NCBI GenBank assembly: GCA_028691695.1
Contig: JAQUYU010000003.1
Coordinates: 1 to 49,928 of the forward strand
Source of the DNA: Sphaerochaetaceae bacterium
GTDB lineage: Bacteria; Spirochaetota; Spirochaetia; Sphaerochaetales; Sphaerochaetaceae
Direction: 5' to 3'
DNA length: 49,928 bases
Of the stretch, positions 10,820 through 45,788 are shown piece by piece. A program made the translations under genes and the position numbers. The notes under the pieces are model-generated. The model ran no database searches. It saw only the letters and a program-made list of their open reading frames with translations, and was not told where the DNA came from. Position 1 is the stretch's first letter. Every line of letters starts with the position of its first letter.

Positions 10820-11362
10820 ATGTCAGAAACCAATCGAACAAGCCTGAAATACCGCCTGATGCCGTTTGCTTTGAGCATCGGCCTGCTGATCCTCGATCAG
10901 ATCACCAAGGCCATAGTTGTTGCGAAGATGCCCATCGGGGTGATCCATAAGCGGATATTCGGTGATTTCATCTGGCTGGTTCATGTACGCAACACAGGCG
11001 CGGCGTTCTCCATAGGTGCGGACAGCAGCGTTGCTGTGAGGATCATTGTCCTGATTCTGCTTCCGCTTGCAGTGATGGCTCTGGTATCATGGGCTATCGC
11101 CTCTAAGAAGATGATTCTTCATGGTGCACAGCGCTGGTTTGCAGCAGGAATCCTCGGCGGTGGCATGGGTACTATCTGCGACCGGATCTTCCGGTTCGAC
11201 GAAGGCGTTGTGGACTTTGTGAGCGTCAATGTATATGGGCTGTTCGGAATGGATCGATGGCCTACTTTCAATGTAAGCGACAGCTGCGTTGTGGTATTCG
11301 TCATCCTGCTGGCATTGTCCATGCTGTTTGAGAAGAAAGGTGATAAGGAGAAGGAAAGATAA
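10820..11362 (+). CDS. lspA: Lipoprotein signal peptidase (signal peptidase II)
   Basis: DQITKAIV, VRNTGAAFSI, GGGMGTICDRIFRFDEGVVDFV, FNVSDSCVV catalytic Asp motifs. Confidence 0.95.
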   Translation: MSETNRTSLKYRLMPFALSIGLLILDQITKAIVVAKMPIGVIHKRIFGDFIWLVHVRNTGAAFSIGADSSVAVRIIVLILLPLAVMALVSWAIASKKMILHGAQRWFAAGILGGGMGTICDRIFRFDEGVVDFVSVNVYGLFGMDRWPTFNVSDSCVVVFVILLALSMLFEKKGDKEKER

Positions 11363-11706
11363 TGGATGAGAAATCTGAAAAGAAACCGATGAACAAGAAG
11401 GCCAATACTGCCATCTTCATGATAGTTGCGACAGTGGTGAACCTTGTGTTCATCATCCTGTTTGCTATCCTTGGGCTTTATATATTCAGCCTGATCTTCC
11501 CTGATACATCAGCGGAAGCAGGAGTAGGGATGCCTGTAGCGCTGTTCGGGCTGTGCTTCATCCTTCCTGTGGTGCTGAGCTGGCTTCTTTACAACTTCCT
11601 CATAAAGATATTATCCAAGAAATTCCATCTCGAGGACAAGCTTGCTCCAATCTTCAACCGAAAGAAGAAGCCTGTCCGTACTGATGACCCCAGCGTGAAG
11701 GGATAG
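11362..11706 (+). CDS. Small two-TM membrane protein (spirochaete 'leader peptide processing enzyme'-like)
   Basis: Two hydrophobic segments; start overlaps lspA stop (TAATGG). Confidence 0.5.
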   Translation: MDEKSEKKPMNKKANTAIFMIVATVVNLVFIILFAILGLYIFSLIFPDTSAEAGVGMPVALFGLCFILPVVLSWLLYNFLIKILSKKFHLEDKLAPIFNRKKKPVRTDDPSVKG

Positions 11707-11708
11707 CA

Positions 11709-12731
11709 ATGCAGCCGATTGAGAAACTTGATGGCATTTCATGGTTTCCGTTCAGTGACGAGCCACTTCTGCACGGTGAGTTCATAATTCCTGCATTCTG
11801 CGACCCGCAGCTGTTGCTTCCTGAAGAATCCATCGATCGCAAGTGGCATCTGTTCGTTCATTCATGGATTGGACTTCATCACTATACAAGCGACTCCGGC
11901 ATCGCATGGGAGCCACGCAACATGATTGAGGTCCGTTCCCATTCGCCTTTCATCTATATCGAGAGAGGCGTGTACTATCTGCTTTATGAAAAGCATGACC
12001 GCAAGATCCCGCTTGTCGGTCAGAAGCACTCGTACCGCAGCAACGAGAAAGATGATGATTCAAGCCGGATTGAGATGTGTTCTTCCACAGATCTTGTGAC
12101 TTGGAGCCGTCCGAGGATCCTGCTGGACAGCCGTTCGGTCTCTTATTCTGCCGATTACAACCGCTCGCCGAGGATCTCCCGGCCGCAGCTTGTGAAGATC
12201 GGTGATACCTACAGGCTTTATTTCGGAGTCTCGCACGTTCATCTTCCCGATACTTATCAGAAAGTCTCCCGTTATTTTTCATATGCAGAATCACAGACGA
12301 TTGACGGACTTTACAAGAGTTCAGACCGCGGCCCGCTCCTGTCCCCGGTTCCTGACGATCCTCTGATGAACCTCGGAGTGGGCAGCATAAGGGTGCTTCA
12401 AGGTCAGGATGGCTTTTCCGCTTTTCAATGCAGTGCATTCTGGGACGAGGAGCATAGCCGTTCCCGCACTGCCATGTTCCTTCTGTCGTCTCCCGATGGT
12501 CTTCGCTGGAAGAGAGTCTCGTCACGACCCATATTCTTCCCTCCGGAGAAAGGCTGGGCAAGCGACTACATAATGGGCTGCGATGCAAGATACAAGGCAT
12601 CTGAGAACTGCTGGTACTGCTACTATTCAGCAAACCGGCAGAACAGCCTCGGAGTAACCGAGGAGTCAGTGGGACTCCTTCTCGGGCAGGTTCCGGCTCT
12701 TCGTGAGCTTAAGGCAACAAGAGAGTCTTGA
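11709..12731 (+). CDS. Beta-propeller glycoside hydrolase-like protein (GH43/32/DUF4975-like fold)
   Basis: Repeated YLLYEK/YRLYFGVS/WYCYYSAN propeller-strand signatures; family not resolvable by eye. Confidence 0.5.
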   Translation: MQPIEKLDGISWFPFSDEPLLHGEFIIPAFCDPQLLLPEESIDRKWHLFVHSWIGLHHYTSDSGIAWEPRNMIEVRSHSPFIYIERGVYYLLYEKHDRKIPLVGQKHSYRSNEKDDDSSRIEMCSSTDLVTWSRPRILLDSRSVSYSADYNRSPRISRPQLVKIGDTYRLYFGVSHVHLPDTYQKVSRYFSYAESQTIDGLYKSSDRGPLLSPVPDDPLMNLGVGSIRVLQGQDGFSAFQCSAFWDEEHSRSRTAMFLLSSPDGLRWKRVSSRPIFFPPEKGWASDYIMGCDARYKASENCWYCYYSANRQNSLGVTEESVGLLLGQVPALRELKATRES

Positions 12732-42506: not shown

Positions 42507-42750
42507 TCTGGCCAATCCCTCATGCTTCTTCCCATTGGTTCTGCCATTTCCCTAAATATGCCAAATACCGGAAAACTTCCCGAAATATTCAGTTCGGCAG
42601 TTCGGCAGTTCGGCAGTTCGCTTCCAGTTCGGTTAGATCGGTTAGTTCGGTTAGTTCGGCAGTTCGGTTAGTTCGGCAGTTCGCTTCCAGTTCGGTTAGT
42701 TCGGTTAGATCGGTTAGATCGGTTAGTTCGGTTAGTTCGGCAGTTCGGTA
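42507..42750. repeat. Composite intergenic element B: TTCTGGCCAATCCCTCATGCTTC motif, GGAAAACTTCCCGAA block, then ~160-bp minisatellite of GGCAGTTC/GGTTAGTTC/GGTTAGATC/GCTTCCAGTTC units
   Basis: Direct reading; minisatellite 42591-42750 with 8/9/11-bp unit variants, including a repeated ggcagttcgcttccagttcggttag phrase. Confidence 0.9.
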
Positions 42751-42950: not shown

Positions 42951-43598
42951 ATGACAATAGATCAGATTGCAAAACACATTGACTACACTATGCTCAAGGC
43001 ATTTTCAACATGGGACGATATCAAGGCACTCTGCGATGAGGCTGCTGCCCATCACACTGCATCGGTATGCATTCCTCCTTCATTCGTGAAGCCTGTTCAT
43101 GAAGCCTATGGACCGAAGATCCGTGTTTGCACAGTCATCGGATTCCCTCTTGGATACAATACAGAGGAAACCAAGGTTTTTGAAGCCAGAAAGGCCATCG
43201 AAGAAGGCGCCGAGGAAGTAGACATGGTGGTAAATATCGGAGATGTGAAGATGGGCAAGTGGGACAAGATCACTACAGAGATTGCAGCCCTTCGCAGGGC
43301 TTCCAAGGGAAAGATCCTGAAAGTCATCATCGAGACCTGCTATGATACCGAAGAAGAGAAGATCCATCTGTGCAAGTGCGTGACCGATGCCGGGGCCGAC
43401 TACATCAAGACCTCCACAGGATTCGGAACTGCAGGTGCATCGCTTGAAGACATCAAGCTCTTCAAAGAGCACATCGGACCGAATGTGAAGATCAAGGCCG
43501 CCGGTGGAATCAGAACAAAGGCAGCAATGGAAGCATTCATTGAGGCTGGCTGTGACAGAATCGGCGCAAGCGCCAAATTCGATACTCTCAAGGACTGA
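42951..43598 (+). CDS. deoC: Deoxyribose-phosphate aldolase
   Basis: IAKHIDYTMLKAFST, VCTVIGFPLGYNTEETKVFEARKAIEEGAEEVDMVVNIGDVKMG, KVIIETCYDTEEE, YIKTSTGFGTAGA, KAAGGIRT. Confidence 0.96.
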   Translation: MTIDQIAKHIDYTMLKAFSTWDDIKALCDEAAAHHTASVCIPPSFVKPVHEAYGPKIRVCTVIGFPLGYNTEETKVFEARKAIEEGAEEVDMVVNIGDVKMGKWDKITTEIAALRRASKGKILKVIIETCYDTEEEKIHLCKCVTDAGADYIKTSTGFGTAGASLEDIKLFKEHIGPNVKIKAAGGIRTKAAMEAFIEAGCDRIGASAKFDTLKD

Positions 43599-44842: not shown

Positions 44843-44904
44843 CAGCCATGACTGTATTTCTCTAGGTGTGAACGGTGCGGCCGTTTACCCAAATATTCAG
44901 GCAT

Positions 44905-44932
44905 TTGACTTAGCTTGAAAGTTGTTTATAAT
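44905..44932 (+). promoter_or_regulatory. Strong sigma-70 promoter driving a small RNA
   Basis: TTGACT-N16-TATAAT, expected start near 44940. Confidence 0.75.
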
Positions 44933-44939
44933 AATCAAA

Positions 44940-45014
44940 GAGGCATTGCTGCAAGGCAACGACCTCAGTTTTATACGGAAACCCGCCTGAGCTGAGATGT
45001 CACGGCGGGTTTAT
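44940..45014 (+). ncRNA. Candidate structured antisense RNA (type I antitoxin-like)
   Basis: GAGGCATTGCTGCAAGGCAACGACCTC hairpin (GAGG/CCTC, TTGC/GCAA) followed by AAACCCGCC-N16-GGCGGGTTT hairpin; own promoter; overlaps the 3' end of the opposing 24-aa ORF. Confidence 0.6.
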
Positions 45015-45085
45015 CTGTCTCTATGATGCAAGTTGCATATTGCAACTATCAAGCTCATGATTGAAATAACAAGAAAATCACTCAA
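45011..45085 (-). CDS. Small hydrophobic peptide, Hol-Tox/type I toxin-like (MSDFLVISIMSLIVAICNLHHRDR)
   Basis: TTG start preceded by AGGAGGTGG at 9-nt spacing; single TM-like segment with charged tail; stop TAA just inside the GC-rich hairpin. Too short for the ORF track. Confidence 0.6.
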   Translation of the reverse strand: MSDFLVISIMSLIVAICNLHHRDR

Positions 45086-45120
45086 CCTTAACCACCTCCT
45101 GCATTCGAGCGCTGATTGCC

Positions 45121-45160
45121 TTGACTATTCCGGTTTTATGTATATACTAGTATATACTAG
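45121..45160 (+). promoter_or_regulatory. Promoter/operator of the AbrB-PIN toxin-antitoxin operon
   Basis: TTGACT-N16-TATACT with palindromic GTATATACTAGTATATACTAG (two TATATACTAG repeats, 45141-45160) over the -10. Confidence 0.65.
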
Positions 45161-45169
45161 GTGGCAGAT

Positions 45170-45436
45170 ATGGTACTTCAGATCAAGAAATGGGGAAATT
45201 CTCAAGGAATTAGGATTCCAGTTGAGCTTCTGAACGAAACAGGTCTTTCTGTCAATGACAGACTTGCTGTTACTTCTTCAGAACATGGAAAGATTGAAAT
45301 CACGAAGATAGATTTGCCGCATAAAGCACTCAAAGCTGCTGGAATGCTTCATCGGTTTGCAGACCCTGAACTGCGGAAGAAGGAGAAAGATGCTTTTGCC
45401 GATGCCATGAAGGAGAAGTACGGAATTGCTGATTGA
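45170..45436 (+). CDS. AbrB/MazE-type antitoxin
   Basis: MVLQIKKWGNSQGIRIPVELLNETGLSVNDRLAV swapped-hairpin AbrB motif; ATG at 45170. Confidence 0.88.
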   Translation: MVLQIKKWGNSQGIRIPVELLNETGLSVNDRLAVTSSEHGKIEITKIDLPHKALKAAGMLHRFADPELRKKEKDAFADAMKEKYGIAD

Positions 45437-45788
45437 TACCAATGTCATACTGAGATACTTGCTTGAAGATGATAAGGAATCTTTTGAAATCGCCTCAAGG
45501 CTCATCAGCGATGGGGCTTCCACGCTTCCAGAAACAATTCCTGAATTGATTTATGTTCTGACTAAGGTCTATAGCATTGACAGAATTACTGCGGCAGATG
45601 CAGTTCTTTCTGTTCTGGAGGATGTAGATGTGGAAAACGTGAAGTCAATCAAGTCAGCTCTAGAGCTTTTCAGAAAAACAGGACTAGATTATGTTGATTG
45701 CCGATATGCAGTTCTTGCTATTGAAAACAGGTATGATGTCTTCACATTTGACAAAAAGCTGGTATCTTTCATAAGAAATGGAAGATAG
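45426..45788 (+). CDS. vapC: PIN-domain toxin (VapC-like)
   Basis: MLIDTNVILRYLLEDD...ELIYVLTKVY...DYVDCRYAVLAIENRYDVFTFDKKLV; TTG start overlapping the antitoxin by 11 nt. Confidence 0.88.
   Translation: MLIDTNVILRYLLEDDKESFEIASRLISDGASTLPETIPELIYVLTKVYSIDRITAADAVLSVLEDVDVENVKSIKSALELFRKTGLDYVDCRYAVLAIENRYDVFTFDKKLVSFIRNGR

What the first reader, a model, noticed from the sequence alone, without database searches (positions are those of the whole stretch)
44905..45100. Unannotated type I toxin-antitoxin-like locus: 24-aa hydrophobic peptide facing a structured antisense RNA
Minus strand: AGGAGGTGGTTAAGGTTG starts MSDFLVISIMSLIVAICNLHHRDR, a short TM peptide with a charged tail. Plus strand: a near-consensus promoter (TTGACT-16-TATAAT) drives a ~75-nt RNA with two strong hairpins whose 3' end is complementary to the peptide ORF's end. 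This convergent, 3'-overlapping layout matches BsrG/TxpA/Hol-Tox-type loci known mainly in Firmicutes. From memory, the RNA segment GAGGCATTGC..GCAAGGCAACGACCTCAGTTTTA resembles sequences that follow Hol-Tox genes in gut Firmicutes; I could not verify this. In a spirochaete-like genome it would suggest transfer or an undescribed family.
Basis: partly seen in the sequence, partly recalled or inferred. Interest (0 to 1): 0.85.

Follow-up and report, generated by a model that had tools for sequence, protein, structure and literature searches.

The report
Spirochaete type I toxin–antitoxin module, decayed copy
This stretch is a worn copy of a tiny toxin gene facing an RNA that should silence it, and it belongs to a large, unannotated family of such self-poison/antidote pairs in spirochaetes, a phylum not among those in which a 2025 paper says such pairs have been found.

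Summary
A TTG-started 24-codon hydrophobic ORF with a strong Shine-Dalgarno (minus strand, 45011-45085) converges on an RNA gene with an 11/12 promoter and two hairpins (plus strand, 44905 to ~45016). The ORF's stop codon lies in the shared terminator stem.

It is not a one-off. The same genome has a second copy (85% identical, 28-aa peptide) and an antitoxin remnant. A peptide profile finds the module in 53 of 141 genomes of the family, up to 7 copies each, and in a Treponema-like family. Across 92 distinct sequences the peptide is under purifying selection (pN/pS 0.18). The antisense promoter is present in 89 of 101 modules against 15 of 400 controls. Layout and profile match Firmicutes Hol-Tox/BsrG/TxpA-type type I toxin-antitoxins, but Pfam, NCBIfam and Rfam miss it.

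The window copy itself looks decayed. It has lost the ~110-nt toxin leader and promoter that relatives carry (copy 2 keeps the leader as far as its contig reaches), and four conserved residues (EILM). Its antitoxin is intact and may act in trans on copy 2. Also seen: toxin leader and antitoxin begin with the same hairpin. Toxicity and expression are untested.

The parts
44905..44932 (+). Antitoxin promoter, TTGACT-16-TATAAT (11 of 12)
   Evidence: An antisense promoter of at least 9/12 occurs in 89 of 101 related modules versus 15 of 400 control stretches.
44938..45016 (+). Antitoxin RNA gene (about 80 nt; both ends predicted)
   Evidence: Fold z -3.55; mean z -2.27 over 45 related modules, 27 below -2.
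44940..44966 (+). Antitoxin 5' hairpin GAGG..TTGCTGCAAGGCAA..CCTC; family consensus GAGGCACTGCCGATAGACGGCTGACCTC
   Evidence: The closing stem varies with both sides changed: GAGG/CCUC, GAAGC/GCUUC, GGG/CCC, GGA/UCC.
44979..45012 (.). Terminator hairpin AAACCCGCC...GGCGGGTTT shared by both strands; the toxin stop codon lies in its stem
   Evidence: the same stop-codon/terminator junction (TAAGCCGCCC...) is in most relatives.
45011..45085 (-). Toxin ORF MSDFLVISIMSLIVAICNLHHRDR, TTG start; lacks the EILM present in copy 2
   Evidence: Relatives under purifying selection, pN/pS 0.18.
45092..45100 (-). Shine-Dalgarno AGGAGGTGG
   Evidence: SD found in 63 of 66 independently retrieved modules.
45106..45107 (.). 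Breakpoint: homology with copy 2 and with family leaders ends; the toxin leader and promoter are missing beyond it
   Evidence: copy 2 leader aligns to family leaders (score 35, shuffled 12), window upstream does not (14, shuffled 11).
45161..45788 (+). Neighbouring, divergent VapBC-type pair (MazE/AbrB-fold antitoxin 45161-45436, PIN toxin 45426-45788); its upstream DNA occupies the place of the lost leader; not part of the module
   Evidence: Pfam MazE_antitoxin 36.1 bits, PIN 52.7 bits.

Best explanation
The locus is a decayed member of a chromosomal, multicopy type I toxin-antitoxin family of spirochaetes, related to the Hol-Tox/BsrG/TxpA group of Firmicutes. In an intact module a promoter ~110 nt upstream of the ORF makes a toxin mRNA. 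Its structured leader hides the Shine-Dalgarno. The ORF encodes a 22-36-aa membrane peptide, and the stop codon runs into a terminator hairpin. A convergent promoter makes an ~80-nt antitoxin RNA that ends at the same hairpin from the other side. The two RNAs are complementary where they overlap (the terminator and whatever the toxin mRNA reads beyond it); they would pair there and the duplex would be cut by RNase III, keeping the toxin off (as txpA/RatA). Lost or reduced antitoxin would let the peptide enter the membrane and stop growth. In the window copy the toxin's leader and promoter have been replaced by the DNA upstream of vapBC and four conserved residues deleted, so the toxin is probably silent and weakened, while the antitoxin gene is intact and could still act in trans on copy 2. 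Shown: sequence anatomy, homology, selection, decay. Inferred: transcription, pairing, RNase III step, toxicity, trans action.
For: Second copy and antitoxin remnant in the same genome. Peptide-profile hits in 53 of 141 family genomes, 6 of 22 genera, 1-7 copies, and in a second family of the class. pN/pS 0.18 over 298 pairs; SD in 63 of 66; antitoxin fold z mean -2.27. Antisense promoter 89/101 versus 15/400. Native leaders lower the SD's unpaired probability to 0.08 against 0.25 with shuffled leaders, lower in 56 of 69. Profile-profile match with Bacilli Hol-Tox, probability 91%, E 9e-7. The window peptide ranks first of 585 small ORFs of the window against a Hol-Tox profile, 11 of 2000 shuffles as good. 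Near-identical peptides and the same layout on staphylococcal phage/plasmid DNA. The genome has RNase III. Window antitoxin with copy-2 mRNA: -131 kcal/mol versus -167 with its own target and -41 with unrelated DNA. Mechanism of relatives: PMC6562991, PMC3531473.
Against: No expression or toxicity data. The window copy and copy 2 are the only full copies in this species, and none was found in two other genomes of the genus. Direct complementarity of the antitoxin 5' hairpin to the SD is at chance level, so a translation-blocking role is not supported. U-tracts after the terminator stem are short. Decay is inferred from comparison: an undetected promoter within the DNA upstream of vapBC could still drive the toxin, and the genome is a fragmented 86%-complete assembly.
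Confidence: 0.8

Rival explanations
1. The peptide is a small functional membrane protein (regulator or stress peptide) rather than a toxin, and the convergent RNA only tunes its level or terminates transcription.
For: Nothing here measures toxicity. Many copies per genome and strong purifying selection would also fit a useful peptide.
Against: Every anatomical sign of tight silencing is present: strong antisense promoter, SD-sequestering leader, stop codon at a shared terminator, and homology to a family with proven toxins (PMC6562991). Patchy presence (6 of 22 genera), tandem copies and broken copies are typical of toxin-antitoxin turnover.
Confidence: 0.13
2. The window copy is a working toxin-antitoxin pair whose toxin is driven from the vapBC promoter/operator region in divergent orientation.
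For: A weak promoter-like site ends 63 nt upstream (8 of 12); the ORF is open with a strong SD; antitoxin promoter intact.
Against: 8/12 is what random stretches give; no minus-strand site of 9/12 or more lies just upstream; the leader is missing; EILM is deleted, whereas the other 30 aligned family peptides have no gap there.
Confidence: 0.2
3. A repeated non-coding element (for example a mobile repeat or a terminator/regulatory RNA) in which the ORF is accidental.
For: Three copies in one genome, one without the ORF.
Against: pN/pS 0.18, in-frame indel, conserved SD and start codon across 92 distinct sequences; shifted frames have stops in 92 and 69 of 92. Copy ends show no terminal inverted repeats (inspection).
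Confidence: 0.03

Closest known systems
Hol-Tox (Pfam PF16935) loci of Lactobacillaceae plasmids and Firmicutes phages
   Same: Order leader-SD-short hydrophobic peptide-stop codon at terminator-convergent RNA with a CCG..GACGG hairpin; N-terminal M-S/T-x-Y/F-E/D/Q motif. Some of these leaders also repeat part of the antitoxin sequence.
   Different: Spirochaete peptides are mostly shorter (22-26 aa), score below the Hol_Tox cut-off (best about E 0.02) and lack the FG core; their antitoxin starts directly with the single hairpin, while the Bacilli antitoxins have an extra 5' hairpin (inspection).
BsrG/SR4 and TxpA/RatA of Bacillus subtilis
   Same: Small membrane peptide, antisense RNA overlapping the 3' end, SD hidden in mRNA structure, RNase III available.
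   Different: The txpA/RatA overlap is longer (~120 nt) and these pairs sit on prophages (PMC3531473); here often tandem, in another phylum; no functional data.
Unannotated staphylococcal plasmid/phage peptides such as MTDYEMLMIVLTIIGLVLISNNQKK (L161) and MSDFEILMIVFTVIGLVMINENHKK (L160)
   Same: Peptide nearly identical over the first ~18 residues; terminator and CCGTCTTT..GAACGG hairpin downstream.
   Different: Firmicutes mobile DNA; extra 5' hairpin in the RNA; different C-terminal tail.
Fst/par (pAD1) of Enterococcus
   Same: Convergent toxin mRNA and antitoxin RNA sharing a terminator, with repeated elements in both (from general knowledge).
   Different: Here the repeats have the same polarity in the two RNAs (inverted in DNA), so they are not an obvious pairing site; peptide relatedness was not tested by profile.

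Membership tests
Type I toxin-antitoxin module (general) | Small hydrophobic peptide ORF under selection, with ribosome-binding site | tested here: met
   pN/pS 0.18 over 92 distinct sequences, SD in 63 of 66
Type I toxin-antitoxin module (general) | Antisense RNA gene with its own promoter overlapping the toxin mRNA | tested here: met
   By sequence only: promoter 89/101 vs 15/400, overlap at terminator. Transcription itself not tested
Type I toxin-antitoxin module (general) | Peptide toxic when expressed, RNA neutralises it | not testable with these tools
   Needs expression experiments
Hol-Tox (PF16935) | Pfam score above the curated cut-off of 23.3 bits | tested here: not met
   0 hits for the window peptide and copy 2; 10 of 31 relatives match weakly, best E 0.017; a control Lactiplantibacillus peptide scores 62.2
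Hol-Tox (PF16935) | Remote homology by profile comparison | tested here: met
   hhalign probability 91.3, E 9.4e-7 for a pairwise comparison; window peptide first of 585 ORFs
Hol-Tox (PF16935) | Convergent RNA with terminator at the stop codon and CCG..GACGG hairpin | tested here: met
   the window's own hairpin has the same shape but a diverged loop
BsrG/SR4, TxpA/RatA mechanism | RNase III-dependent decay of the toxin mRNA paired to the antitoxin | not testable with these tools
   RNase III gene present; duplex predicted
Fst/par | Antitoxin pairs with the toxin SD region through dispersed repeats | tested here: not met
   Antitoxin 5' hairpin to SD duplex at background level: 41% of random stretches as good; family mean z -0.40
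Any Rfam RNA family | Covariance-model match | tested here: not met
   None at gathering threshold; only chance matches up to E 10

The most novel reading that the evidence does not exclude
Spirochaetes carry a large type I toxin-antitoxin family in which toxin mRNA leader and antitoxin begin with the same hairpin, a shared regulatory handle not described before to our knowledge, and broken copies such as this one persist because their antitoxin protects the cell in trans against the intact copies.
Probability: 0.3. Interest if true: 0.75.

Novelty: new variant of a known kind. Interest (0 to 1): 0.62.

Why it matters
A 2025 paper states that type I systems were known only from Proteobacteria, Firmicutes and Tenericutes, and adds Cyanobacteria (PMC12390103). 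A conserved multicopy family in Spirochaetota would widen that range and shows that current protein and RNA models miss whole lineages of such modules. It gives ready test loci (for example three tandem copies in one genome), links Firmicutes and spirochaete modules, and raises a concrete question about why both RNAs start with the same hairpin.

Tried and rejected
Anti-SD pairing by the antitoxin 5' hairpin: an 8-of-9 match was seen by eye, but random stretches do as well and the family mean is z -0.4; dropped. DNA-pattern searches for the hairpin in 85,488 genomes and in viral contigs: the 14 genome hits and one viral hit were chance matches on inspection. DNA searches of relatives, phages and plasmids found only the own genome; only the two-sequence peptide profile reached the family. 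Hol_Tox Pfam search of relatives: no hit over the cut-off and hits mostly inside long frames. Rfam and PADLOC: nothing. The first covariance model was not needed. MAFFT-based covariation of the whole antitoxin was poor because the loops shift; stem changes were read from individual folds instead. Mobile-repeat reading rejected by coding selection.

Full report
OBSERVATION. The minus-strand ORF (TTG 45085-45083, TAA 45013-45011) encodes MSDFLVISIMSLIVAICNLHHRDR behind AGGAGGTGG; the plus strand has TTGACT-16-TATAAT at 44905-44932 and a two-hairpin RNA. Only 1 of 200 shuffles folds as well as the RNA. The stop codon lies in the terminator stem shared by both strands.

OTHER COPIES IN THE GENOME. 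The window is contig C81 of a 1.88-Mb, 86%-complete assembly. A second copy lies on C157:54-270 (85% identity) and a remnant of the antitoxin hairpin on C125:3926-3982. Copy 2 encodes MSDFEILMIVVSIMSLIVAICNLHHRDR: relative to it the window copy lacks 12 nt in frame, and of four substitutions three are synonymous. Remnant 3 has a degraded promoter and no ORF. Homology between copies 1 and 2 runs from 44902 to 45106 only.

THE FAMILY. DNA searches of relatives, phages, plasmids, viral contigs and 85,488 genomes found no other copy. A profile of the two peptides did: hits starting at residue 1 in many genomes of the same family and in another family of the class. Fetched loci showed the same module again and again: SD AGGAGGTGATG, peptide MSDYELLMIVFTVIGLVIA..., stop codon running into a GCCGCCC...GGGCGGC-type hairpin, then the reverse of GAGGCACTGCCGATAGACGGCTGACCTC and a reverse promoter. 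A 31-peptide profile then matched 53 of 141 family genomes, 6 of 22 genera, with up to 7 copies, and genus g80 of family f25 at phylum level. Tandem copies occur (three within 1.4 kb in G115:C5 and within 1 kb in G080:C94).

TESTS ON THE FAMILY. Over 298 pairs among 92 distinct sequences pN/pS is 0.18; shifted frames contain stops in 92 and 69 of 92; SD in 63 of 66 modules not used for the profile; antitoxin fold z mean -2.27 with 27 of 45 below -2. These pairs are not independent of one another. An antisense promoter of 9/12 or better stands in 89 of 101 modules, against 15 of 400 random stretches of the window scanned the same way. Closing stems change on both sides (GAGG/CCUC, GAAGC/GCUUC, GGG/CCC, GGA/UCC).

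LEADER. Toxin-side promoters cluster 100-120 nt upstream of the start codon (28 of 52 sites of 9/12 or better). With native leaders the SD is unpaired with probability 0.08, with shuffled leaders 0.25 (lower in 56 of 69), as expected for a translation-poor full-length toxin mRNA. Unexpectedly, many leaders begin with nearly the same sequence as the antitoxin (GGCACTGCC..GACGGCTGACCTC): in 63 of 105 modules the same-polarity similarity beats all 20 shuffles, against 6 of 105 for the opposite polarity. Firmicutes loci show a weaker version (for example L044 and L160). The role is unknown.

THE WINDOW COPY IS DECAYED. Copy 2's upstream stretch aligns with family leaders (score 35, shuffled at most 12) although its contig ends inside the leader; the window's upstream stretch does not (14, shuffled at most 11). 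There the DNA upstream of a vapBC-type pair begins. The 12-nt deletion removes EILM; none of the other 30 aligned peptides has a gap there. The antitoxin gene, by contrast, keeps a promoter of the best-scoring class (11/12). Its RNA is predicted to pair with copy-2 toxin mRNA at -131 kcal/mol, against -167 for its own target and -41 for unrelated DNA. So the simplest reading is a broken toxin with a surviving, possibly trans-acting antitoxin. Broken copies occur elsewhere in the family too (L073, L104, L111, L156).

TAXON. FlaA (PF04620), found by the tool in none of 14 control genomes, is present in 44 of 60 genomes of the class and in none of the 4 genomes of the window's own family examined. 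With general knowledge this means Spirochaetia and a non-flagellate family such as Sphaerochaetaceae; genome sizes suggest that f25 is Treponema-like.

COMPARISON WITH KNOWN SYSTEMS. Hol-Tox loci from Lactobacillaceae plasmids and Firmicutes phages were fetched and have the same order of parts. Profile-profile comparison gives 91% probability, E 9e-7; the window peptide ranks first of 585 small ORFs of the window against a Hol-Tox profile, with 11 of 2000 shuffles as good. But no member tested reaches Pfam's cut-off while a true Hol_Tox scores 62 bits, so it is not filed as Hol_Tox. The closest peptides outside spirochaetes are on staphylococcal plasmids and a Mammaliicoccus phage. In B. subtilis such RNAs pair at their 3' ends; SR4 also hides the SD, RatA works through RNase III (PMC6562991; PMC3531473). 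RNase III is encoded in this genome. Direct SD pairing by the antitoxin hairpin is at background, which favours the RatA-like route.

NOVELTY. PMC12390103 (2025) lists type I systems only from Proteobacteria, Firmicutes and Tenericutes and adds Cyanobacteria. Full-text searches found no paper naming both Sphaerochaeta and toxin-antitoxin; the search pairing type I systems with spirochaete terms gave none that mentions type I systems among its 15 listed papers. The library is partial, so earlier mention elsewhere is possible.

LIMITS. No expression, toxicity or pairing data. Many related genomes are fragmented assemblies. Firmicutes chromosomes could not be searched, so direction and age of any transfer are open.

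Noticed in passing
window 42591-42749: A short tandem array of a 9-bp unit (AGTTCGGTT/AGATCGGTT, ~18 copies, also readable as 63-bp units) lies in the gap before the gene at 42951.
   Followed up: no
window 45121-45160: The vapBC-type pair has its own promoter (TTGACT-16-TATACT) overlapping a TATATACTAGTATATA palindrome, probably its operator, where the toxin leader of the type I module is missing.
   Followed up: partly
L002 (G000:C157) 1-53 and 872-1770: The contig with copy 2 ends inside the toxin leader, perhaps because of the inverted repeat; on the other side lies a gene that reads like a TIR-domain protein (by eye only).
   Followed up: no
Family modules, e.g. L083, L065, L080; Firmicutes L044, L160: Toxin mRNA leader and antitoxin RNA start with the same hairpin in the same polarity (inverted repeat in DNA); function unknown.
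   Followed up: partly
L063 (G115:C5), L146 (G080:C94), L125 (G152:C18), L087 (G334:C20): Tandem arrays of two or three modules within 0.4-1.4 kb.
   Followed up: no
L159 (IMG/VR contig) 11300-12050: A viral contig carries the identical antitoxin core ACCGTCTATCGGCAGTGCC and a similar leader but a different peptide (MSIVDLIAVISFGLTCFGIGYSIGKDSNNTQK) with no Pfam match.
   Followed up: partly
L160, L161: Staphylococcal phage/plasmid peptides almost identical to the spirochaete ones, annotated only as hypothetical proteins, with the same convergent RNA layout.
   Followed up: partly
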